A stretch of 64,000 nucleotides of DNA, taken from contig NZ_FOKF01000019.1 in assembly GCF_900111995.1 (NCBI RefSeq), positions 1 to 64,000 on the forward strand. The letters run 5' to 3'. The stretch's first letter is position 1, and every line of letters starts with the position of its first letter. The notes under the pieces are model-generated. The model searched no databases. It saw only the letters and a list, made by a program, of their open reading frames with translations, and was not told where the DNA came from. A program made the translations under genes and the position numbers. This document shows, in pieces, positions 8,489 to 47,988 of the stretch. The DNA is from Collimonas sp. OK607. Its GTDB lineage: Bacteria > Pseudomonadota > Gammaproteobacteria > Burkholderiales > Burkholderiaceae_D.

Positions 8489-9751
8489 ATGCAAAAAATT
8501 AAAACCGTCCTATCTGTTTTTTTGTTGTTTGGCTGCGCGTTATTGCTCGCGGGGTGTGCATCTTTATCCACATCGATTTCGCAATTCGAAGGTGGCAACT
8601 ATGTCGCCAGCGTAAAGTCGACACTCGTCTATCTCGATGAAAAATACAAGAAAGCGGATTACGACGATAGCGATGAAAGAAATGGCATCCGCGAACGCAT
8701 GCGGATTATTGAAAGCAACTACGAAACCGCAATCAACAGCGCCAACCCTCTGGAGTACGACAAGAAAATAGCTGCCTGTTCGGCCTTGCTGGAAATCAGG
8801 ACCATGCTGGCCGAAAGGCGCTATTACGCAAGGTATACCGATTTGCCGGATCGCTATTCCGATGCGGTATTGCGGGAAAAACTGGCCGGGCAGTACTACC
8901 TGAAAGCTACGTCTGCCGTTGTCTACAAGGATGACCGCCAGGCAGCCATCAGCTTCGCAGCCGCTGCCGATGTTTATCAAAAGTACGGCGACTATAAAGA
9001 CGCCAGGAAGCAAGCCGGAAAATATAAATTTGCAGCTGATAACAAGGACGCTGCAGCGTATTACCAGCAAGGGCAGGATCTGGTAGCGCGCAATGCGCAA
9101 CGCAGCAGAGCCATGTATCGCGACGCCAGCCAGGCTTTTTATAACGCCTCTGACGTGTACCGCGATCACGGTGCTTATAAGGATGCGCAGCCGTTGTCGG
9201 AAAAATATCACGCCATGGGTACTGTCGTGCTGCAAATCAGCAGCAACGAACCGGAGGGCGATATCACCAGAAGCGTGCTGGGATTGTTTGATCTCGGTTT
9301 CACCCGGTTTCAATATCAAGGCGGCGCCAAAGCCGACCTAGGCATGTATCTGAATACCTCCTACATATACTACCCACCCAAATCCAGGCAATACGTAGAG
9401 GCGATGAGCGAAAACGTCGAATTCAAGAAACAGGACGGCTCGACGGCGGTGCGCACCTATCGTTTCAACCGTAAAGTCGTGGAGGAAGTAAATTCGATGC
9501 AGATCGTGCTGGATCTGTCCGTCACCAGGGCGCCGCCCCTTGATCTGCGTTATGACGAAGTTGCCGAAAGCCGCCGCACCACCATCAGCTACTATGGCGA
9601 CGTACCGGGTAACGGCCGCTATGGCTATCGAACCGAAGGTTATCTGATGGACCGGGATCAACTTTGGCGCGCGGCGCAAGCACAGTTGATCAACCGCCTC
9701 AACGGTGACAACCGGATCAGGATGATTCAGGACGACATACGGAATTTCTAG
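8489..9751 (+). CDS. Lipoprotein with helical repeat region, unknown function
   Basis: A 420-residue predicted lipoprotein. The signal peptide (residues 1-20) ends in lipobox LAGC, giving lipid-modified Cys. Residues about 120-240 hold several short A/Y-rich helical repeats (YLKATSAVVYKDDRQAAISFAAAADVYQKYGDYKDARK and similar), like TPR or Sel1-type pairs with a recurring Y.DYKDA motif. The C-terminal half (about 250-420) is beta-rich. The start at 8489 follows ACAGGGAAAAG; an upstream ATG at 8393 would hide the signal peptide. Probably an envelope assembly or surface lipoprotein. Confidence 0.75.
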   Translation: MQKIKTVLSVFLLFGCALLLAGCASLSTSISQFEGGNYVASVKSTLVYLDEKYKKADYDDSDERNGIRERMRIIESNYETAINSANPLEYDKKIAACSALLEIRTMLAERRYYARYTDLPDRYSDAVLREKLAGQYYLKATSAVVYKDDRQAAISFAAAADVYQKYGDYKDARKQAGKYKFAADNKDAAAYYQQGQDLVARNAQRSRAMYRDASQAFYNASDVYRDHGAYKDAQPLSEKYHAMGTVVLQISSNEPEGDITRSVLGLFDLGFTRFQYQGGAKADLGMYLNTSYIYYPPKSRQYVEAMSENVEFKKQDGSTAVRTYRFNRKVVEEVNSMQIVLDLSVTRAPPLDLRYDEVAESRRTTISYYGDVPGNGRYGYRTEGYLMDRDQLWRAAQAQLINRLNGDNRIRMIQDDIRNF

Positions 9752-27882: not shown

Positions 27883-28348
27883 AGCGCATCTGACTGCCGT
27901 CAGCGCCGAGTTGCGGCAGAATCCCGATAAGTTGCTGATCTTTGCGGAGAGCGGCAACACCGTGGCGACCGGCACCGCCTCGCTGTCGTTTGAATACCGA
28001 TATAAGCTCAATATCATCATTACCGATTACAGCGGCAGCGAAGATGCGATGATGGTCCCGTTACTGGCCTGGGTGCAATTGCATCAGCGCGACTTGCTGG
28101 ACCATCCGGAGTTGCGCAAAACCGGTATCGGCTTTGATGTGGATTACAACAATCACACCTCGATCGATCTGGCGATCACGCTAGCGCTCACTGAGCGCGT
28201 GGTGGTGAAGCCCGCCGGCGCCGGTCGACTGGAAGTTGTACACCTGGCCGAGCCGCAACCGACGCCGGCCTATACCGACGAGTTCTGGCAAGCCTATGCG
28301 GGCGACGCGTTGCTGGCCGAATGGCATACACCGGCCAACCCGCAATGA
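27860..28348 (+). CDS. R: Tail completion protein R (P2 gpR)
   Basis: A 162-residue gpR. It starts MYKPKSLRAHLTAVSAELRQNPDKLLIF and has YRYKLNIIITDYSG, the conserved block of P2 R. GGGGG nine bases upstream supports ATG 27860. It acts with gpS in finishing the tail before head joining. Confidence 0.92.
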   Translation: MYKPKSLRAHLTAVSAELRQNPDKLLIFAESGNTVATGTASLSFEYRYKLNIIITDYSGSEDAMMVPLLAWVQLHQRDLLDHPELRKTGIGFDVDYNNHTSIDLAITLALTERVVVKPAGAGRLEVVHLAEPQPTPAYTDEFWQAYAGDALLAEWHTPANPQ

Positions 28349-28812
28349 GCGACGATCTCTCTACCCTGGAAGCCTGGGCCGGCGCACTGCTGGCCCAGCT
28401 TCAACCGGGTCAGCGTCGCGTCATCACACGCCGCATTGCGCAAGACTTGCGCCGCAGCCAGGTGCAACGTATCGCCAGCCAGCAGGCGCCGGATGGCGCG
28501 CCCTTCGCGGCACGCAAGCAACGCAAGAGCCTACGCGGTAAAAAAGGAAGAATCAAACGGCAGAAAGCCTCGATGTTTGAGAGGATCCGCACGCAAAAAA
28601 ATCTGAAAATCGAGCAGGACGAAAACCAGTTATCGGTTGGGTTCTTTGGGCGCGTGGCGCGCATTGCCCGTGTGCACCAGGAAGGATTAACCGACAAGGT
28701 CGCAAAAAAAGGGCCGGAATATCGCTATCCGGCCCGGCCTCTACTTGGTTTCAGCGCTACCGATCAAACATTGATTCGAGATTCGCTATTGCGTCATCTG
28801 GATGGATTTTAA
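28345..28812 (+). CDS. S: Tail completion / virion morphogenesis protein S (P2 gpS)
   Basis: A 155-residue gpS. It has the opening LSTLEAWAGALLAQLQPGQRRVITRRIAQDLRRSQVQRI and the conserved C-terminal part QLSVGFFGRVARIARVHQEGLTDKV ... YPARPLLGFSATDQTLIRDSLLRHL. It overlaps R by 4 bases. Two decayed copies of its 3' half occur further right (29426-29524 and 31000-31252), which mark cargo boundaries in the adjacent moron region. Confidence 0.94.
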   Translation: MSDDLSTLEAWAGALLAQLQPGQRRVITRRIAQDLRRSQVQRIASQQAPDGAPFAARKQRKSLRGKKGRIKRQKASMFERIRTQKNLKIEQDENQLSVGFFGRVARIARVHQEGLTDKVAKKGPEYRYPARPLLGFSATDQTLIRDSLLRHLDGF

Positions 28813-28917
28813 TGTGATGGTCTAATGTCTTTTCCAACGTTTTCCTTGACCTGTTCTGACGTTGAACAATGTCCGCAAAGACAGTGAAATACAGTTTTGA
28901 ATAATTTCAATAAAAAA

Positions 28918-29196
28918 TTACAGCCGGGCATCGCCAGTGATGTCTTGAATGCTGACGATGTCGCCCCCACGCTTTGTCATTTCTCGATGACACATGGCGA
29001 CGAGTGCATTGAAATCTACACCTTCTGCCGCACCATCAAGATTATCTTTTATCCACTCGGGGCTAATTGTCCCAGAGTGTCCAACGCGTAGCGCTGTGCC
29101 AATGTATGAGGCGCTGTAAGCACCGCCCTGTTGTTTTTCTGTGACCAGGAACGTAAAAATGACATAAGTGGTTTCGATGAGATATGTCTTGTGCAT
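28918..29196 (-). CDS. Small moron protein, unknown function
   Basis: A 92-residue protein I do not recognise. It begins MHKTYLIETTYVIFTFLVTEKQQGGAYSASYIGTALRV and ends SIQDITGDARL. GAGGAAA nine bases upstream fixes the start. It reads leftward between S and the first S remnant, the opposite direction to the late operon, as morons usually do. The sequence looks like a small globular alpha/beta protein without membrane spans. Confidence 0.55.
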   Translation of the reverse strand: MHKTYLIETTYVIFTFLVTEKQQGGAYSASYIGTALRVGHSGTISPEWIKDNLDGAAEGVDFNALVAMCHREMTKRGGDIVSIQDITGDARL

Positions 29197-29425
29197 GTTG
29201 ATTTCCTCGATCTGTTCCGACGTTGAATGACAGCCCTCAACAGGCGGTCGAATCATCGGAATAACCCACATCTGGGTTACGTCATTTGGCACGAGAGTGA
29301 CTCGATTTTGGATAGTTCCCGCATAAAATAATCATTGCGTATATTTGATGGATTGCATCATGGTCACCTAAATATTGATAGGTACAGGTCCGGTCCCGCG
29401 AGCGCAGGCATTCCATACAAGATGG

Positions 29426-29524
29426 AAAAAAGGGCCGGAAGATTACTATCCAGTCCGGCCCTTACTCGCTTTCCCCCCGCCATGAAGCGTTGATTCGAGA
29501 TTCTTTGTTACGTTATCTTGACTG
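29426..29524 (+). pseudogene. Remnant of the 3' end of gene S (S')
   Basis: About 100 bases aligning with 28705-28800 of gene S. GGGCCGGA, CTATCC, CCGGCC, ACTCG-CTTT and TTGATTCGAGATTC are kept in order. It ends at the same point as S, just before the next cargo gene. No reading frame remains upstream. Confidence 0.75.
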
Positions 29525-29941
29525 CTAGTGTTGCAGCTTGGCACGAAATAGAATATCTCTCAAAATGTGGTCGTCATCGAAAACGATTTTTAACGCGTGG
29601 CCCAACACCGTCAAACTCGTAGTCGTTCCGGAAATTAAAAATAGGTTGGTGTTTGACTCGAAAATGACTTCATTGGCCAGTTGCGGAAATCGTTCCGCGA
29701 TGACTGCTTGCGCAACGGCGTTCCAGTCGCAGCCGTTGCCGGTCCAACCTTCTTCAGCCCGCTCCTTAAATATGTGTGCTTTTTCCTCAAAATGTGAGTC
29801 GAATAAAACTAATACTTTGAAGTCGCCGTCAATAAGTATGAACGGCCAAAACGTTGTAATGTCGACTGACTCATTTTTTCCTCGTGGAGTATCAGCTCTC
29901 GGTGAGCTAGAGGCCAAGCTTGCTATTGGGTCGACCTTCAT
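29525..29941 (-). CDS. Imm51-family immunity protein
   Basis: A 138-residue protein matching the Imm51 polymorphic-toxin immunity pattern. It has an N-terminal FWPFILIDGDFKVLVLFD strand pair, then EEGWTGNGCDWNAVAQAVIAERFPQLANEVIFESNTNLFLISG, equal to the family's G(Y/W).GNG.DW..la....., E..fd.e..mF. I start it at 29941, where GAGAGG precedes the ATG; an ATG at 29986 is possible. No toxin gene is adjacent. As an orphan immunity gene in a prophage it could protect the lysogen from toxins of rivals. Confidence 0.72.
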   Translation of the reverse strand: MKVDPIASLASSSPRADTPRGKNESVDITTFWPFILIDGDFKVLVLFDSHFEEKAHIFKERAEEGWTGNGCDWNAVAQAVIAERFPQLANEVIFESNTNLFLISGTTTSLTVLGHALKIVFDDDHILRDILFRAKLQH

Positions 29942-30159
29942 TGAATGCCTCTCTTTCAACGCGGTTGGACGCAAAAACTTGCTCATGCGTCGCCGTGTGA
30001 TTTAATTAGACGCATACCGAAGCATCTAAATAATAGGAAATCTGACAGTGCAATACATTAATAAAATACAACTTTGAGGAAAATATTTCGACCTCAAGCA
30101 GAAATAGATAATGGATCGCAACTTTGTAAAATCGCGCCATAGCGTTTTCCCGGAAAGGT

Positions 30160-30230
30160 TAAAAAGTTGCGTCACGACATTCGCATTCCAGGTTGTAATC
30201 ACGAGTTTGCGGCTCACACATTGGCTGCCG
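30160..30230 (-). pseudogene. Remnant of the 3' end of the dam gene (dam')
   Basis: On the minus strand it still encodes VSRKLVITTWNANVV-TQLFN, against VSRELVITNWNADVMTQLF at the C-terminus of the intact methyltransferase. Upstream codons are unrelated. It is part of the gene-free stretch 29987-30489, in which I see nothing else. Confidence 0.75.
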
Positions 30231-30489
30231 TCGTTATCAGTTGCGTACCATCGACGGCTCACCAACTCACGTTGGACAGCCGTTACCGTGGCCTGTTCGA
30301 AGCACATTTTGTTTTTAATCACCTTGTATTTTCTGACTAATGATGCGTTGTTGTTATACGTAAATACTCACGTGGGAATTGCGCAACAGCATAGTTAAAT
30401 GGTCTCAATTGTTAGCTTTTTTACTAGTTTATTTGCCATAGACGATTTAATATCAAATCGTCTCCATACAAAAAAAAAGAGGTGACGAC

Positions 30490-30774
30490 ATGGGATGGTT
30501 TAACAAATTGGCGGCCAAATATATTCTGACCCCGGAAAAGCTGGCGGAAAATGAATTACGCGATACACGCTTGGCCTTGTATCAATCAGAACGGCAGTTG
30601 CTGGAAGCGCAAATGCGAGTCGATTATTACTGCAATATTCTGACCTTCCTCGAAGCCATTACCGTCGACGGCGTAGAAAGTGTCGCCGAATCGCAGAGAC
30701 CAAAACTGTCCTCACAAACGCCAGTACCGCAGCGGCGCGCACCAGATCTGAGTTCTTACCGAGGCGGAGCCTGA
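30490..30774 (+). CDS. Small coiled-coil protein in moron array, unknown function
   Basis: A 94-residue protein. The middle (residues about 15-55, KLAENELRDTRLALYQSERQLLEAQMRVDYY) is a strongly predicted helix or coiled coil. The C-terminal third is Pro/Ser-rich and disordered. GAGGTGACGAC before the ATG is a good ribosome-binding site. It reads in the late-operon direction between dam' and S''. I cannot name a function. Confidence 0.6.
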   Translation: MGWFNKLAAKYILTPEKLAENELRDTRLALYQSERQLLEAQMRVDYYCNILTFLEAITVDGVESVAESQRPKLSSQTPVPQRRAPDLSSYRGGA

Positions 30775-30999
30775 CCTCAGACTCGCATGGGTTTCATGCG
30801 GCGCAAACGATCAGGCATGGATCGCTGTTTATGCTTATTCGTTTTCGCCGCAACTCGTGCCGCAACTCCCGCGACGGATGAAGTAAAGAACTGATTACAC
30901 GTCTCAAGCAAGCTTGATTGCGGTCGGCCAGCGTACCCATTGCGAAACGGTAGCTCGCGTCGTCACGCCTAGGGCCGCACGCCTGCCACGCGTTTGTAC

Positions 31000-31252
31000 T
31001 CCCAAAATCGGAAGGCTGCGGTGTTTGAGAAAATTCGCACAAAAAATAAATCTCAAGACCCTGCAGAACGAAAATCAGCTGTCGGTCGGTTTCTTCGGGC
31101 GAGTGGCACGCATCGCTCGCGTGCACCAGGAGGGGTTAACGGATAAGGTCGCAAAAAAGGACCGGCATATCACTATCCGGCCCGGCCTTTACTCGGCTTT
31201 GGCGTCTCTGATCAATCATTGATTCGTGAATCTCTACTGCGGCATTTCGATG
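31000..31252 (+). pseudogene. Remnant of the 3' half of gene S (S'')
   Basis: Aligns over about 245 bases with 28562-28803. The translation still reads NENQLSVGFFGRVARIARVHQEGLTDKVAKK, identical to S for over 25 residues in total, before a frameshift destroys the C-terminus. It lacks the N-terminal half and a start. The stretch 30775-31469 holds nothing else clear. Confidence 0.85.
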
Positions 31253-31469
31253 TAGTAATCACGACTTGATCTGACATGACATGCTCGAACGTGAATGTCT
31301 CGATTCGACGGCGGATCCGAAGCGAATCCAGGACAACACACACATTGGGGTGATTGGGGTTGATGAGGCGCTGGAAAAATTTAACGCGAGGGAATATATG
31401 CCGATATACTTGATGCACGGATCAACGTTATTTAACGTTGACGTCAAAAATTTAAGATGACAGGTCTAC

Positions 31470-31586
31470 ATGAAATATAAACTTGTGCCAAAGAAAAATT
31501 TAATGCCTCGTGTATCTCCATGGTGCAGTTTGTGTGGCGCGCGAGGGCCTGATGATTGCCATTGTGACGTCTCTGACTGCACCTGA
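31470..31586 (+). CDS. Tiny Cys-rich protein (38 aa)
   Basis: A 38-residue frame with CSLCGARGPDDCHC and a final DC: five Cys arranged CxxC...CxC...C, suggesting a small zinc knuckle. AGG five bases upstream of the ATG, and an intrinsic terminator 14 bases after the stop, support it being a real transcription unit. It lies between S'' and dam''. Family unknown. Confidence 0.45.
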   Translation: MKYKLVPKKNLMPRVSPWCSLCGARGPDDCHCDVSDCT

Positions 31587-31599
31587 ATGACATCTCCCG

Positions 31600-31624
31600 C
31601 CGCCAGCATCCTGGCGGTTTTTTT
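31600..31624 (+). terminator. Intrinsic terminator
   Basis: CCGCCAG-CATC-CTGGCGG followed by seven T, directly after the tiny Cys-rich gene. Confidence 0.8.
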
Positions 31625-31708
31625 ACCAAGTAGGGGGTGGGCAAGGGTCAAGGGCCAGGCCGCAGCCCGACCGAAGGGAGGGACCGGGCGAGGACTGGGG
31701 CGAAGCCG

Positions 31709-31818
31709 AATCACTAGTTCGCGGCTCACGCCAAGTTGACCATACGTCCTGCCGATACTGTACTTAATGTCTAACCCCATGTCCGTAAAACCGTCGAACA
31801 CCCGGCGAATATCTGGAG
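31709..31818 (-). pseudogene. Remnant of the 3' end of the dam gene (dam'')
   Basis: The minus-strand frame reads PDIRRVFDGFTDMGLDIKYS and then GVSRELVI, nearly identical to residues about 216-256 of the intact methyltransferase. It then runs into unrelated codons. The rest of 31625-32029 holds no gene that I can support. Confidence 0.85.
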
Positions 31819-32029
31819 CGATTAGCCGACTAGCATGACGTCTAATCAGTGACCGCGTCGTGCATGGCGGGCAGCAGGCCATACCTTCACCATGTCTCGT
31901 CGATGGTTAACCTTACTTCACGCTACGTCATCGGCGGCTTTATCAAGCTGAGCCAAGATGGTGGTTTGGCTTAAACGAACTACAGGGAAAAAGTGCCGCG
32001 CCGCAGGCATTCCCGAAGCACGGCTGATT

Positions 32030-33418
32030 TCAGCTTAGAGTGGCGGATTCAGTGACTTGTCCCGCAGGGATGAACGCAGCATTGGGATCCGTGAATGTAT
32101 TGGTGGCGATGATTACATTCAGAAGACGGTCACCCATTTCGTCTGGAACGTCCATTGGTAAGATGCCGTAACGTGCGGGGGGACTCTTCAACAGGTAGTC
32201 ATGGAGTTTGGGGTTAATATACCGGGAAACGACAATGGGAGCCATGAAGCCAGTACCGCTCGAGAAGTTGATGTACAACTTCTCCATGTCGGGGTCTGCT
32301 CGTGCCTCGTCCAATACGGGCTTCATGTATACATCGAATTTTGTGTCGACGTTGAACCCGGAATAGGACTTATACTCGTCTTGGATTCGTAGGGTCACAC
32401 CCCAATGGTTCGTGTGCGTTTCAGTAGAATTTTGTGGCCAAAGTGCACCACTGGCGTCAATCCCTCCGACATCCGCGTTCCCTGGATAATGTTCAAATCG
32501 TCGTAGAAGGACGATCTTGCCGCGCACATCACGCAAATGTGGTATCGATGTGCCTGTCGAAATCCTGCCTGCATCGGCAAACGGCTGCAGGGTGGGCAGA
32601 ATCAATCTCTCAAGTTTTTCTCTATCGTCATTTTCATCTTTCACAGACATGATTATGCATTCGGACGGGTTCGCAGCCAGAAAATCTGAACACATCTGCA
32701 ATGCCTGGCTGAAGGTCAGATTCAGGTGAACCCCCAGGGGATCCGCCCCGTGACTGAACCAAAGGCTTTGTGTTCCTTCGAAAAAAAGGCCTACGTGAAG
32801 GCGGAAGTCGAGAAATCGGACCCCGCGTTCGAGTTGCTGCTGGATGTCGATCTGTTGACATTGCGCCAGTGACATGTCCGTCAGATACGTTGCCGTGTCA
32901 TGTGTTCCAGGGATCGTTAAGGCGGACAGGAGCTTATTCTCGTTAACATAATGCATCCAGTTCTTGCCGCTATAAGGGTAGATGAATCCATTTTCCTTGT
33001 TATCTTCATTGACGAACCCGAAAGTACCGGGGTGGTCCATGGCCGGAGTGGTGGTAAGCAAATGCACACCAGTTGCATGCTTGTACCATCGAGATAGGTG
33101 AACGGCATCTCGCGGTTTATGGTCCGGTGCGAAGACGTACCCTTCGATCCTCTCAAACACGTACCCCGCTTTCGCCGCGTCTTCGGCCTCATTAGATGTA
33201 TAGAGGTGGAGAAGATACGGCTTCTCTCGCCGATATCGTAGCAGCGGCTTCAAGCCCGGCGCAGGCGAACTGAATATGTATCCAATTGGTGTCAACTCTA
33301 CGTATTCCGGACCGAAGCCTTCAGTATGCGTTGTAGTTGTATAGAAATAGTCGCCGGTAGAATAGTGTTGAAATCGGCGTAACAGTTTCAGATGGGAAAA
33401 CACTTCCTCTGGCAACAT
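32030..33418 (-). CDS. PI-PLC-like phosphodiesterase with N-terminal DUF5648-like domain
   Basis: A 462-residue two-domain protein. Residues about 1-150 contain repeated short aromatic strands (HYSTGDYFYTTT, PYLLHLYTS, GVHLLTTT), like the DUF5648 beta-propeller/lectin-like unit. Residues about 155-440 are a bacterial PI-PLC X domain. Its catalytic His is at 173 (IPGTHDT), followed by DFRLH (Arg206) and second His at 223 (FSHGAD). It would cleave phosphatidylinositol or glycosyl-PI. No signal peptide is evident, so delivery is unclear. A phospholipase as prophage cargo suggests lysogenic conversion or a host-interaction effector. Confidence 0.82.
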   Translation of the reverse strand: MLPEEVFSHLKLLRRFQHYSTGDYFYTTTTHTEGFGPEYVELTPIGYIFSSPAPGLKPLLRYRREKPYLLHLYTSNEAEDAAKAGYVFERIEGYVFAPDHKPRDAVHLSRWYKHATGVHLLTTTPAMDHPGTFGFVNEDNKENGFIYPYSGKNWMHYVNENKLLSALTIPGTHDTATYLTDMSLAQCQQIDIQQQLERGVRFLDFRLHVGLFFEGTQSLWFSHGADPLGVHLNLTFSQALQMCSDFLAANPSECIIMSVKDENDDREKLERLILPTLQPFADAGRISTGTSIPHLRDVRGKIVLLRRFEHYPGNADVGGIDASGALWPQNSTETHTNHWGVTLRIQDEYKSYSGFNVDTKFDVYMKPVLDEARADPDMEKLYINFSSGTGFMAPIVVSRYINPKLHDYLLKSPPARYGILPMDVPDEMGDRLLNVIIATNTFTDPNAAFIPAGQVTESATLS

Positions 33419-33580
33419 GATAGCTTTCTCCTATTGAATGCGAAGGCGGAAATTTCCGCATGGCAATATTAGCAAATTTCGAAGAACTCAGCTTATTCAC
33501 TTGAATAAGCTCGTATGCCATCTCTGCCCTATCGTGGGGTATTCACTTGGAGCTATGCCCCAGGTGATAAGCACGTAGAC

Positions 33581-34387
33581 CTAGAAAAGCTGTGTCATCA
33601 CGTCCGCATTCCAATTGGTAATCACCAGCTCGCGGCTCACGCCTGGCTGTCCATGCGTGCTCCCGATGCTGTATTTGATGTCCAGTCCCATCATCGTAAA
33701 TCCATCAAACACCCTGCGAATGTCGGGATGGTCGTTGATGCTGACCATCACGCGGCCCTTACAGGTCCGCATGAATTCCGCCATCTGCTCGTATTGTTCG
33801 ATCCCAAAATCCACGCCATAGCCCGCCATCTGCCAATACGGCGGATCCAGGTAAAAGAACGTGTGCTCCCGGTCGTAGCGCTTCATGCATTCCAACCAGG
33901 GCAGGTTTTCCACATAGGTACCAGCCAAGCGCAAGCGGGCAGCTCGCAGATTTTCTTCAATCCGGGTCAGATCGATGGCCGGCCCGGTGGTGGCGGTGCC
34001 GAAATTTTGCCCGGCGACCTTGCCGCTGAAGGCGTGCTGCTGTAGGTAGTAAAACCGGGCGGCTCGCTGAATGTCGGTCAATATCTCCGGTCGGGCATCC
34101 TGATGCCATTTGAATAGATCCCGGCTGCTGAACGCCCACTCGAACTGCCGCACGAATTCGGCCATGTGGTGTTGCACGACCCTGTACAGGTTGACCAGTT
34201 CACCGTTAATGTCGTTGATGACCTCGGTGCGTGCTGGCACACGTCGCAGGAAATACAGCGCGGCGCCGCCGCAGAATACCTCGACATAGCATTCATGCGG
34301 CGGGAATAAAGGGATGAGTTTATCGGCCAGGCGGCGTTTGCCACCCATCCAGGGAATGATCGGACTTGCTTGCACGTACTGCTCCAC
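33581..34387 (-). CDS. dam: DNA N6-adenine methyltransferase (D12/Dam class)
   Basis: A 268-residue D12-class enzyme. SAM-binding motif I appears as WMGGKRRLADKL and YVEVFCGGAALYFLRR, the acidic motif as INDINGELVNLY, and the catalytic motif as DPPY in FFYLDPPYWQ. It methylates adenine, probably to protect phage DNA or tune host gene expression; specificity cannot be read. It is preceded by an overlapping com-like gene. Two decayed copies of its 3' end lie to the left, so this locus has been a repeated recombination point. Confidence 0.92.
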   Translation of the reverse strand: MEQYVQASPIIPWMGGKRRLADKLIPLFPPHECYVEVFCGGAALYFLRRVPARTEVINDINGELVNLYRVVQHHMAEFVRQFEWAFSSRDLFKWHQDARPEILTDIQRAARFYYLQQHAFSGKVAGQNFGTATTGPAIDLTRIEENLRAARLRLAGTYVENLPWLECMKRYDREHTFFYLDPPYWQMAGYGVDFGIEQYEQMAEFMRTCKGRVMVSINDHPDIRRVFDGFTMMGLDIKYSIGSTHGQPGVSRELVITNWNADVMTQLF

Positions 34388-34780: not shown

Positions 34781-35455
34781 ATGCAACGCATGACTGCCGA
34801 CTACTCCGACCTGCTGCGTTTAATCCTGAATCTGATTCGATTCGGTACCATTGCCGACATCAATCACGACACCCACCGCGTGCGCGTCAAGGTCGGTGAG
34901 AACGTCACCACATGGCGCCCGTGGATCACGTTACGGGCTGGCGATGCGCAGACCTGGTTTCCACCCTCCATGGGCGAACAAGTCATTGTGCTGTCACCCG
35001 AGGGCGATTTCGCCAATGCTGCGATTCTGCCGGCAATCTATTCCGACAAATTTAAATCGCCGTCCACTAACCCAGCACACCACACCACCCGCTATGTGGA
35101 CGGGACCGTGGTCCAGTACGACAGCGCGGCGCGCACCTTGACGGCGACACTGCAAGATGGCACCAGCGTCACGCTCGCGCCTGGCAAAGTGACCTCGAAC
35201 GCTGAAGACACAGAATGCACCGGCAACCTGCTGGTGCAAAAGAATCTGGTCGTCAACCAGAACCTGACGGTCAACGGTCTTTCGGCTTTAAATTCCGGCA
35301 TGAACGTCCAAGCAGGCAAGACTGGCGGCCCCGCCGCCGTGGTGCAAGGCATCATCCAAGCTACCATGGACGTGGTCGCTGCCGGCATCAGCTTGGTAAA
35401 ACATCCGCACGGCGGCGTAAAGCAGGGCGACGACGACACCGGTGGCCCGAAATGA
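34781..35455 (+). CDS. V: Baseplate spike protein V (P2 gpV)
   Basis: A 224-residue gpV. It has the OB-fold part (FGTIADINHDTHRVRVKVGENVTTWRPWITLRAGDAQTWFPPSMGEQVIVLSPEGDF), beta-helix repeats (NLLVQKNLVVNQNLTVNG) and the iron-binding tip HxH in VKHPHGGVK. It forms the trimeric needle that pierces the outer membrane. First gene of the tail operon after the moron array. An ATG at 34790 is an alternative start. Confidence 0.95.
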   Translation: MQRMTADYSDLLRLILNLIRFGTIADINHDTHRVRVKVGENVTTWRPWITLRAGDAQTWFPPSMGEQVIVLSPEGDFANAAILPAIYSDKFKSPSTNPAHHTTRYVDGTVVQYDSAARTLTATLQDGTSVTLAPGKVTSNAEDTECTGNLLVQKNLVVNQNLTVNGLSALNSGMNVQAGKTGGPAAVVQGIIQATMDVVAAGISLVKHPHGGVKQGDDDTGGPK

Positions 35456-46227: not shown

Positions 46228-47988
46228 TTATGAATCTACGTCAATGCCATACATTACTTTGGCACGTTTCTGATTTATGCTACTTTCAGATGCAATCTTT
46301 CTTATAGCGGCACGCACGTTCCCATAGATCAGTTTATGTTTCTTTGTAGCGTCGGGGTCACTGCTTTGAAGGTCGCCAAAAAACAGGAGTCCAGATCGAA
46401 GTTTAGTAGACAAATCAGTTGGATTTGTTTTTATCCACGCCACAAACTCATCTTGAGTGACTGAACACAGAAAATCGATGTCCTCCGGATTCCAGCCTTG
46501 AGTAGTAGCGATCTTCATACACACTTGGTCAATGTCTTGATCGTTCCGAGGCGCTTGAATTGTTTTAATACGGTCTATGAGCGGTTTATAGGAAACTCTG
46601 CGCGCAACCGACGTGTCATGCCGATCCATATTTACGAATTGTGTTTCATGAAGTGTTACATAGTTTTCCATCAATTCGTCAACGTCCTCTCCCAGTTCAG
46701 ACAGCATTTCGAGTGCGGATGCATACTCACTTAAATTGAGTTTGTCGGCCTCCTTCGAGAGAACAGATTTAAACGTACGAACGATTTCAACCTGATTGTC
46801 GGCGAATGATTCCGAATACAGAGACCAAACGTCACTTAGCGCCTTTTGAGCACGATTGACATCTATTTTCTTGGAGAGTTCTTGAATTGCCGTCTTGGCT
46901 TCCGAGACGTCCACATAACCCCGGACGAGATAGTGAATTATATATTTATCAAATATTGATGGAGACAGTCGCAGTGTTGATGCTATTGAACGGTATCGTT
47001 TCTCATCTGAGGAAACCTCTTTATCTTTTTCGCCGAAGTAAGAAGACCAATAACTATCTTCCAACCGTACTTTCAGGAAATCAAACGACACTGCAGTGCC
47101 CCTCAAATAATAGGACCAACATAGCACTGCTGCATGGTTAATGAACTCGCTAACTATCAGATCACTTGAGTTTTCCAGTTCGGACCAGAACGTGTCAATC
47201 ACGCCCTTTAGTTTCTTTATGACTCGGATATTTTTCAAATCCAAGGCAACAATAACAGTTTCGATTGTTGCGAATAGGCGATGATTGGAAGAGAATACAC
47301 ATTCTAGATTTTGTTTATGGGTCGGATTGTGATCCAGCTCGGCATCAACAACTTTCTCCCGATATGACTCGAACTCTTGTTTGTCTTTTTCTTCTGAAAA
47401 TGAGTTGTCATTAAATATAAGAACAACCTTGCAGTTCTTTCGACGGGCCAGTTCATCAGTCAAGCCCATTATTTCTCGAACCGACAATGAGCCGCCTTTT
47501 CGCTCCATATCATCAAAACATATGACATAGTTTGCAACCAAACTATATTCCATCGACGCAATAATTCCTGCAAATTTATCTGTGTAGGGTGCGGAACGTG
47601 CAAAATTCGTAAACCACTTAACGAATGGTGCCTTTTCTTTTGCTATGTTCATGGCTCCGCGCACCCAAGGTGCTCTACTCAAGAGACTTGTACTGTCCTC
47701 AAGCTGTTGATCAAAGTGAGCATCGATTTTCGCATTTGAGGATATTGCCTTTGCTGATTGAAATATCGACGCGCGTACGTCCGCAAGGGATGTCTTACCA
47801 AAGAGAGAAACGTAGCTGTATGCAACTTGCTTGATATCTTTCTTCGCGATTCGATCTTTAATGTACGAATTCCAAAGATATGTCTTGCCAACTCCCCAAG
47901 CGCCTTTGATGACGATAACCTGATCATCGCTATTGAAAAAAGAATCGAGTGATTTTATGGATGGATGCATGAGCGAAGGGAGAGTCAT
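46228..47988 (-). CDS. KAP-type P-loop NTPase, possible defence protein
   Basis: A 586-residue KAP-family-like ATPase. Walker A at residues about 29-36 (KGAWGVGKTY). The Walker B is in VICFDDMERKGGSLSVREIMGLTDELA, followed by VVLIFNDNSF as sensor strand. The large C-terminal region is helical with no membrane span visible. A+T content is higher than in the flanking tail genes and it reads against them, typical of a moron. KAP NTPases occur in several anti-phage systems, so superinfection defence is a fair inference; an alternative start is ATG 47970. Confidence 0.75.
   Translation of the reverse strand: MTLPSLMHPSIKSLDSFFNSDDQVIVIKGAWGVGKTYLWNSYIKDRIAKKDIKQVAYSYVSLFGKTSLADVRASIFQSAKAISSNAKIDAHFDQQLEDSTSLLSRAPWVRGAMNIAKEKAPFVKWFTNFARSAPYTDKFAGIIASMEYSLVANYVICFDDMERKGGSLSVREIMGLTDELARRKNCKVVLIFNDNSFSEEKDKQEFESYREKVVDAELDHNPTHKQNLECVFSSNHRLFATIETVIVALDLKNIRVIKKLKGVIDTFWSELENSSDLIVSEFINHAAVLCWSYYLRGTAVSFDFLKVRLEDSYWSSYFGEKDKEVSSDEKRYRSIASTLRLSPSIFDKYIIHYLVRGYVDVSEAKTAIQELSKKIDVNRAQKALSDVWSLYSESFADNQVEIVRTFKSVLSKEADKLNLSEYASALEMLSELGEDVDELMENYVTLHETQFVNMDRHDTSVARRVSYKPLIDRIKTIQAPRNDQDIDQVCMKIATTQGWNPEDIDFLCSVTQDEFVAWIKTNPTDLSTKLRSGLLFFGDLQSSDPDATKKHKLIYGNVRAAIRKIASESSINQKRAKVMYGIDVDS

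What the first reader, a model, noticed from the sequence alone, without database searches (positions are those of the whole stretch)
28812..34387. Moron array punctuated by decayed copies of the flanking genes S and dam
Between gene S and gene V there are several cargo genes. In between lie two degenerate copies of the 3' end of S (29426-29524 and 31000-31252, + strand) and two of the 3' end of dam (30160-30230 and 31709-31818, - strand). They alternate S, cargo, S', Imm51 gene, dam', coiled-coil gene, S'', Cys-rich gene, dam'', PI-PLC, dam. Each copy ends at the same point as its parent. The simplest reading is that new cargo arrives with a fresh S-end or dam-end and the old copy is left behind as a scar, so the locus records successive exchanges. 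This suggests a defined cargo-swapping mechanism at this site.
Basis: partly seen in the sequence, partly recalled or inferred. Interest (0 to 1): 0.82.

Follow-up and report, generated by a model that had tools for sequence, protein, structure and literature searches.

The report
Phage cargo carrying borrowed gene-end terminators
In viruses of the soil bacterium Collimonas, the tail end of a structural gene (S) hides a backwards "stop" signal for the neighbouring passenger gene, and broken copies of that gene end lie scattered among the passengers, apparently because some of them still serve as stop signals.

Summary
The window is a Collimonas P2-like prophage. The four S/dam copies are real (blastn E 8e-53 to 1.6e-7), but dam'' stops 39 nt short of its parent's end. 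They do not look like decayed copies of the resident genes: mismatches favour third codon positions in three of four, S'' matches another prophage's S better and runs about 40 nt past its stop, and parts of the array recur in another prophage and a relict. Broken S ends occur across the genus. Their 5' edges vary and one dam-S fusion shares only 3 nt: illegitimate joining of S-cargo-dam intervals, not a defined swapping system. The new point: the S 3' end carries, antisense, an intrinsic terminator (28704-28735) for the leftward cargo gene. It passes a strict rule in 22 of 25 Collimonas-type S genes against 0.44-0.85 expected from synonymous codons, and a looser rule in 4 of 64 other S genes. 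Of eight Imm51 loci, six keep an S end after Imm51, one trimmed to the hairpin; two have an unrelated terminator there. Some S "scars" thus look like moron terminators; many have decayed, and the dam ends look like plain scars.

The parts
28321..28812 (+). gene S (P2 gpS-like tail completion protein), intact
   Evidence: Pfam PF05069 E 6.5e-37
28704..28735 (-). antisense intrinsic terminator inside S: GGGCCGGA-9 nt loop-TCCGGCCC then T7, S positions 391-415 plus T run
   Evidence: only such hairpin antisense to 18,174 nt of this prophage's late genes
28918..29292 (-). cargo gene of unknown family, convergent with S
   Evidence: homologues in 7 of 100 genomes, own included, all of the same genus
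29414..29529 (+). S' remnant (S model 371-490)
   Evidence: nhmmer E 2e-16; 74.5% to resident S
29426..29462 (-). terminator hairpin kept in S', in a shifted pairing register, 8-9 pairs plus T run; lies 60-100 nt after the Imm51 stop
   Evidence: more stable than randomly placed changes, p 0.008
29525..29986 (-). Imm51-family immunity-like gene
   Evidence: Pfam PF15595 E 1e-11
30161..30228 (-). dam' remnant (dam model 738-804), stop codon lost
   Evidence: nhmmer E 3e-5, blastn E 1.6e-7
30259..30960 (+). segment resembling Collimonas chromosomal DNA, with the coiled-coil gene 30490-30774; relatives of this gene in 14 of the 15 Collimonas genomes searched, own included
   Evidence: 89.8% to L231
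31009..31294 (+). S'' remnant (S model 241-486) plus about 40 nt of an L144-type S-dam spacer
31153..31183 (-). terminator hairpin kept in S'' (7 pairs, one G-U possible only in the minus-strand RNA, T6)
   Evidence: p 0.10
31470..31586 (+). 38-codon Cys-rich ORF, followed by its own rightward terminator-like hairpin at 31599-31618
   Evidence: read from sequence; hairpin
31709..31817 (-). dam'' remnant (dam model 660-768), lacks last 39 nt
   Evidence: blastn E 5e-20
32030..33418 (-). PI-PLC-X plus DUF5648 cargo gene
   Evidence: Pfam
33581..34387 (-). dam-type N6-adenine methylase, intact
   Evidence: Pfam PF02086 E 1e-25
34781..35455 (+). gene V (baseplate), right border of the cargo interval
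   Evidence: Pfam PF04717

Best explanation
The S-V gap is the P2 'orf30' cargo slot. In Collimonas phages a leftward cargo gene (in the simplest case dam) runs head-on into S and is terminated by an intrinsic terminator written on the antisense strand of the S coding sequence (structure, conservation and neighbourhood shown; termination itself inferred). Now and then two such S-cargo-dam intervals become joined in tandem by homology-poor recombination between dam of one copy and S of another, between two genomes or by deletion between tandem prophages (junctions shown in L162 and L164, route inferred). The incoming interval keeps the S end because that end is the terminator of its cargo. The rest of S is trimmed; the dam end, which has no terminator, decays. 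Blocks made this way are then inherited and shuffled between phages and relict prophages. The window array is such a composite: S-orf28918 / S'-Imm51-dam' / host-like segment with the coiled-coil gene / S''-Cys-rich-dam'' / PI-PLC-dam.
For: Terminator in S: strict rule met in 22 of 25 in-frame Collimonas-type S genes vs 0.44 (codon usage) or 0.85 (own codons shuffled) expected; looser rule met inside S in 4 of 64 distinct S genes outside this group; 1 hit in 18,174 nt antisense of late genes, namely S; among imperfect pairs those allowed in the minus-strand RNA prevail, 11 G-U vs 2 A-C in full genes and 28 vs 14 in remnants; synonymous differences lower in codons 129-140 (0.26 vs 0.40). Use by cargo: of 8 Imm51 loci, 6 have an S end after Imm51, one of them cut down to the hairpin region (L231, S 361-426), and the 2 without have an unrelated strong terminator there. 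Hairpins in remnants are more stable than randomly placed changes would leave them: Fisher P 7e-4 over 28, with WIN S', L142_6307 and L148_7479, all next to Imm51, at p 0.008, 0.004 and 0.001. Tandem joins: L164 dam527|S312 with 3-nt overlap, L162 dam725 facing S375 within about 10 nt. Imports and shared blocks.
Against: Many remnants have lost the hairpin: only 4 of 28 are individually significant and several score worse than random (L148_5729, L149, L169_6363); in the S391-415 register 44 of 224 pair cells in remnants, and 18 of 232 in full genes, are plain mismatches. Beside Imm51, L159's S end has no usable hairpin (p 0.60) and those in L146 (p 0.12) and L148 have only about 4 T. Three of the 8 Imm51 copies hold stop codons in the aligned part (L142 four, L148 and L231 one each), so two of the three best-kept hairpins and the trimmed one stand beside genes that may be dead. 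S'' has no clear leftward gene after it. The direct dam|S fusion is absent from the window (about 780 nt of other DNA lies between dam' and S''). The S'' tree position is unresolved. Most fam104 members have no S-end hairpin after them. Loci share ancestry, so the P values are optimistic. No transcription data.
Confidence: 0.62

Rival explanations
1. Portable homology arms: S ends and dam ends beside cargo let blocks be exchanged by ordinary homologous recombination between prophages, relicts and incoming phages; the hairpin is incidental.
For: Blocks with S ends are shared between distinct phages and relicts at different identities (73.5% and 86% in neighbouring parts of L159), which suggests mosaic exchange; relicts with S ends are common.
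Against: Recombination within matching S ends would leave one hybrid S and no remnant; the S end in L231 is trimmed to the hairpin region, which is poor homology; does not explain the antisense terminator in intact S genes.
Confidence: 0.3
2. Pure scars: S and dam ends are passive leftovers of illegitimate recombination and hairpins persist only because S itself has one.
For: 24 of 28 remnants show no individually significant hairpin retention; dam ends have no antisense terminator, yet they also persist; some hairpins stand beside Imm51 copies with stop codons.
Against: L231 keeps only the hairpin region, L148_7479 has a 15-pair stem more stable than in any of the 29 full S genes folded, and the Imm51 loci without an S end carry another terminator at the same place; combined test P 7e-4.
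Confidence: 0.25
3. One reading: a defined cargo-swapping mechanism leaves successive scars of the resident S and dam ends, so that the locus is a time-ordered record.
For: Alternating order of S and dam ends; most S copies run to the S end (33 of 39 distinct remnant hits reach model position 468 or beyond).
Against: Variable 5' edges, 3-nt junction; S'' not nearest to the resident S; divergence not ordered with distance; shared blocks.
Confidence: 0.08
4. Gene-level attC analogue: the S-end hairpin is a recombination site recognised by an unseen recombinase.
For: Hairpin near the 3' end of cargo genes, recurring across the genus.
Against: No recombinase family among the interval proteins scanned; T-run and synonymous conservation fit a terminator; unrelated terminators replace it; the L164 breakpoint is not at the hairpin.
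Confidence: 0.04

Closest known systems
P2 orf30 / S-V variable locus of P2-like phages (PMC3091744, passages seen; P2 record NC_001895)
   Same: Cargo between S and V; leftward gene convergent with S; this locus is named there as one of three common places for foreign genes in P2-like phages
   Different: In P2 the hairpin lies after S (annotated O-operon terminator 9397-9433); here it is inside the S coding sequence and travels with cargo as S-end copies
Morons of temperate phages (recalled concept: extra gene with its own promoter and terminator)
   Same: Independent cargo genes with terminator
   Different: The terminator is borrowed from the antisense strand of a structural gene and carried as a truncated gene end
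P2/P4 defence hotspots next to cos (PMC9122126, passages seen)
   Same: Small variable locus of P2-like phages with defence genes; L034 carries a PDC-S06 defence candidate here
   Different: Different site (S-V, not cos-proximal); no gene-end copies mentioned in the passages seen
Gene-end duplications left by tRNA-targeting integrative elements (recalled)
   Same: 3' ends of a conserved gene repeated beside cargo
   Different: No fixed core site; 5' edges vary; no recombinase among the interval proteins scanned

Membership tests
P2-like phage S-V cargo locus | R-S-variable cargo-V gene order | tested here: met
   Pfam of R, S, V; 38 intact intervals
P2-like phage S-V cargo locus | leftward cargo gene convergent with S | tested here: met
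   orf28918 in the window; dam in L144; P2 orf30
Intrinsic terminator | GC-rich stem followed by a T run | tested here: met
Intrinsic terminator | stops transcription | not testable with these tools
   no RNA data
Moron | cargo gene has its own terminator | tested here: met
   Imm51 in the window; 5 of 8 Imm51 loci pass the rule, 3 S-derived and 2 unrelated
Moron | cargo gene has its own promoter and is expressed in the lysogen | tested here: inconclusive
   10 promoter-like sites vs 7.5 (sd 2.9) in shuffles; expression not testable
Site-specific cassette exchange | fixed breakpoint | tested here: not met
   5' edges vary
Site-specific cassette exchange | dedicated recombinase at the locus | tested here: not met
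   none among the interval proteins scanned; trans-acting enzymes not excluded

The most novel reading that the evidence does not exclude
The S end is a portable module in its own right: an antisense terminator that doubles as a homology arm, so that leftward cargo plus S end is a self-insulated cassette that phages and relict prophages of a whole genus trade and stack, an integron-like cassette logic without an integrase.
Probability: 0.24. Interest if true: 0.78.

Novelty: new variant of a known kind. Interest (0 to 1): 0.6.

Why it matters
It gives a concrete reason why pieces of a structural gene stay beside cargo genes: they hold the cargo's transcription terminator. This makes testable how temperate phages add a gene without disturbing late transcription, and how coding sequence and an antisense signal are selected together. 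It also offers a marker, the S end, for finding S-V cargo arrays in relict prophages.

Tried and rejected
Rejected: local decay of resident duplicates (codon-position pattern and nearest-source comparison; weakest for S' by codon position and for dam' by nearest source); age-ordered accretion; an antisense terminator in the dam 3' end (none in the dam copies listed except that window dam'' lies near the Cys-rich ORF's own hairpin; a sense-strand hit with one mismatch occurs in L144-type dam); a general P2-like property (4 of 64). The built-in terminator scan missed the S hairpin because its loop is 9 nt (limit 8), so I wrote my own rule. Tree of S'' with 29 S genes and 5 other remnants: unresolved. 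No direct or inverted repeat of 16 nt or more between the tRNA-Arg region and 14-20.5 kb was found, so I do not claim the attachment site. S against named phage records: no DNA match; 251 protein matches, all under 60% identity. Literature: searches gave no listing whose title or abstract start describes S-end copies or an antisense terminator in gpS; I saw passages only of PMC9122126 and PMC3091744; Nilsson et al. 2004 was seen only as a citation.

Rows dropped: 4 of 29 distinct S sequences were left out because the extraction lost the frame. In the looser two of these had a clean hairpin (L005, L024), one had a mismatch (L146) and one had none (L045). In one search, 28 of 39 distinct remnant hits were tested, namely those that cover the hairpin (41 hits, two of them in L043, a duplicate of L146). 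In one search near-duplicate loci were skipped beforehand, but L063 and L115 look alike and were both kept. The remnant profile is built from Collimonas-type S genes, so remnants in the 15 other intervals may be missed.

Full report
WHAT IS THERE. The window lies in a Collimonas genome (the nearest named loci are Collimonas) and holds a P2-like prophage (portal, terminase, gpD and integrase families; R, S, V). Between S (28321-28812) and V (34781-35455) lie cargo genes and four broken gene ends. Blastn of S and of dam against the whole window finds exactly these four above noise: S'' E 8e-53, S' 4e-12, dam'' 5e-20, dam' 1.6e-7; every other hit is at E 0.15 or worse. Pfam confirms R, S, V, dam, Imm51 and PI-PLC.

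NOT DECAYED LOCAL DUPLICATES. Mismatches to the resident gene fall mostly on third codon positions in S'' (29 of 45), dam'' (18 of 24) and dam' (9 of 14), though not in S' (10 of 24). This is the mark of genes that diverged while working and were broken later. S'' is 84.6% identical over 285 aligned columns to the S of another Collimonas prophage (L144/L005), including about 40 nt after the S stop, against 78.6% over 243 columns to the resident S. A tree of S'' is unresolved, so the exact source is open; for dam' the resident dam is the nearest of those compared, and for dam'' it is about as near as any. The stretch from the end of S' through Imm51, dam' and the coiled-coil gene is shared with a second prophage (L043/L146, 75.6% over 1,495 columns) and in parts with a relict array (L159, 73.5% and 86%). 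The blocks are therefore older than this prophage's present form. The more diverged copy, S', lies nearest to S, so position does not give age.

GENUS-WIDE. With S as query, 21 of 148 genomes (own included) have matches, among them 12 of the 15 Collimonas genomes counting this one, many only to the S 3' end. I fetched 40 regions. Of 39 distinct remnant hits, 33 run to model position 468 or beyond, the S stop being near 489-492, while their 5' edges vary from 73 to 404. In 19 of the 40 regions no other gene of this prophage was found by tblastn within the 14-kb or so fetched. Some lie near tRNA genes; in L142, L154 and L159 tRNA-Arg(cct) is within about 1.1 kb, the tRNA that stands beside this prophage's integrase gene. 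I read these as relict prophages. In intact prophages remnants are rarer: 4 of 23 intervals whose S is at least 70% identical to this one, and 1 of 15 others.

THE ANTISENSE TERMINATOR. The simplest intact interval is S, about 360 nt, dam (leftward), V (L144), the same plan as P2, where orf30 runs leftward into S. In the Collimonas type the hairpin lies inside S at positions 391-415: on the minus strand GGGCCGGA-loop-TCCGGCCC followed by T7 (28704-28735). A strict rule (at least 7 pairs, at least 6 of them G-C, at least 5 T in 7) is met in 22 of 25 in-frame S genes. Resampling synonymous codons by prophage usage predicts 0.44 genes in all, shuffling each gene's own codons 0.85 (4 of 29 sequences were left out because the frame was lost). 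Outside the group a looser rule is met inside S in 4 of 64 distinct S genes; P2 has its hairpin 33-62 nt after S. In 18,174 nt antisense to this prophage's late genes the only hit is the one in S, and in 41 kb upstream of S in six relatives there is one hit. Imperfect pairs are more often those allowed in the minus-strand RNA: 11 G-U against 2 A-C in full genes, 28 against 14 in remnants; plain mismatches are 18 of 232 and 44 of 224 pair cells. Synonymous codon differences are lower in codons 129-140 (0.26 against 0.40), though windows starting at codons 1-3 and 46 are as low or lower; the first overlaps gene R.

DO THE REMNANTS STILL USE IT? S' keeps a perfect hairpin in a shifted register just downstream of the Imm51 stop, S'' a 7-pair stem. 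I compared each remnant with its nearest S and placed the same number of changes at random. Over the 28 remnants that cover the hairpin the structures are more stable than expected (Fisher P 7e-4, ignoring shared ancestry), but only 4 of 28 are significant alone and several have plainly decayed. Three of those four stand after Imm51: window S' 0.008, L142 0.004 and L148 0.001; the two other Imm51-side ends tested, L146 and L159, give 0.12 and 0.60. The Imm51 family offers a natural experiment. A search of 100 genomes finds 8 places, all inspected. In 6 an S end follows Imm51. In one of these (L231) only the hairpin region of S (361-426) is left. In the 2 without an S end an unrelated strong hairpin with T run sits in its place. 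By my rule 5 of 8 have a terminator (3 S-derived, 2 unrelated; L231 has a second, unrelated one further on), L146 and L148 have S-derived hairpins with only about 4 T, and L159 has none. Against this, three of the 8 Imm51 copies hold stop codons in the aligned part (L142 four, L148 and L231 one each), so some of these genes may be dead. Another leftward family (called fam104 here) shows the S-end hairpin downstream in L041, L151 and L160, but most of its other members do not.

HOW ARRAYS FORM. The order S-cargo-dam / S-cargo-dam is what joining intervals in tandem gives. In L164 a dam piece (from model position 527) is fused to an S piece (from 312) with 3 nt in common; in L162 dam 725 faces S 375 within about 10 nt. 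L170, from another genus of the family, has two near-full S copies in tandem, the second preceded by an R 3' end. A crossover between two genomes, or a deletion between tandem prophages, would both do. In the window and in L159 about 780 nt lie between dam' and S''. Most of it (30259-30960) resembles Collimonas DNA outside the prophage, with a small coiled-coil gene whose relatives are in 14 of 15 Collimonas genomes, so host DNA seems to have been captured there. The dam ends hold no antisense terminator and look like plain scars.

NOVELTY. That the S-V (orf30) slot of P2-like phages takes foreign genes is known (passages of PMC3091744), as are other variable loci of such phages (passages of PMC9122126). 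I found no description of an antisense terminator in gpS or of S-end copies as moron terminators in searches of a library that lacks most subscription papers. I rate this a new variant of a known kind. Shown: the copies, their distribution, the hairpin and its conservation, the Imm51 neighbourhood, two dam|S joins. Inferred: that the hairpin terminates transcription, that this is why S ends are kept, and the recombination route.

Noticed in passing
window 32030-33418: PI-PLC-X plus DUF5648 cargo protein (462 aa); among 100 genomes the only matches outside the window are three weak ones (33-35% identity) outside the genus.
   Followed up: partly
window 46228-47988: Leftward KAP-NTPase-family protein (Pfam E 3e-9) matching PADLOC candidate family PDC-S49 (E 6e-22), right after the gpD gene: perhaps a second cargo site of the prophage.
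   Followed up: partly
L034 8548-11169: 873-aa protein matching candidate defence family PDC-S06 (1070 bits) between S and dam, its stop about 55 nt after S.
   Followed up: partly
L138, just after the Imm51 stop: A stretch that by eye looks like a tRNA 3' end lies beside the relict cargo, perhaps an attachment-site remnant; ARAGORN reports no whole tRNA there.
   Followed up: no
L170 6279-7950: Two near-full-length S copies in tandem, both matching S in two frames, with an R 3' end before the second (another genus of the family): a possible early stage of the same process.
   Followed up: partly
window 30259-30960: Host-like segment with a small coiled-coil gene found 1-3 times in 14 of the 15 Collimonas genomes searched; function unknown.
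   Followed up: partly
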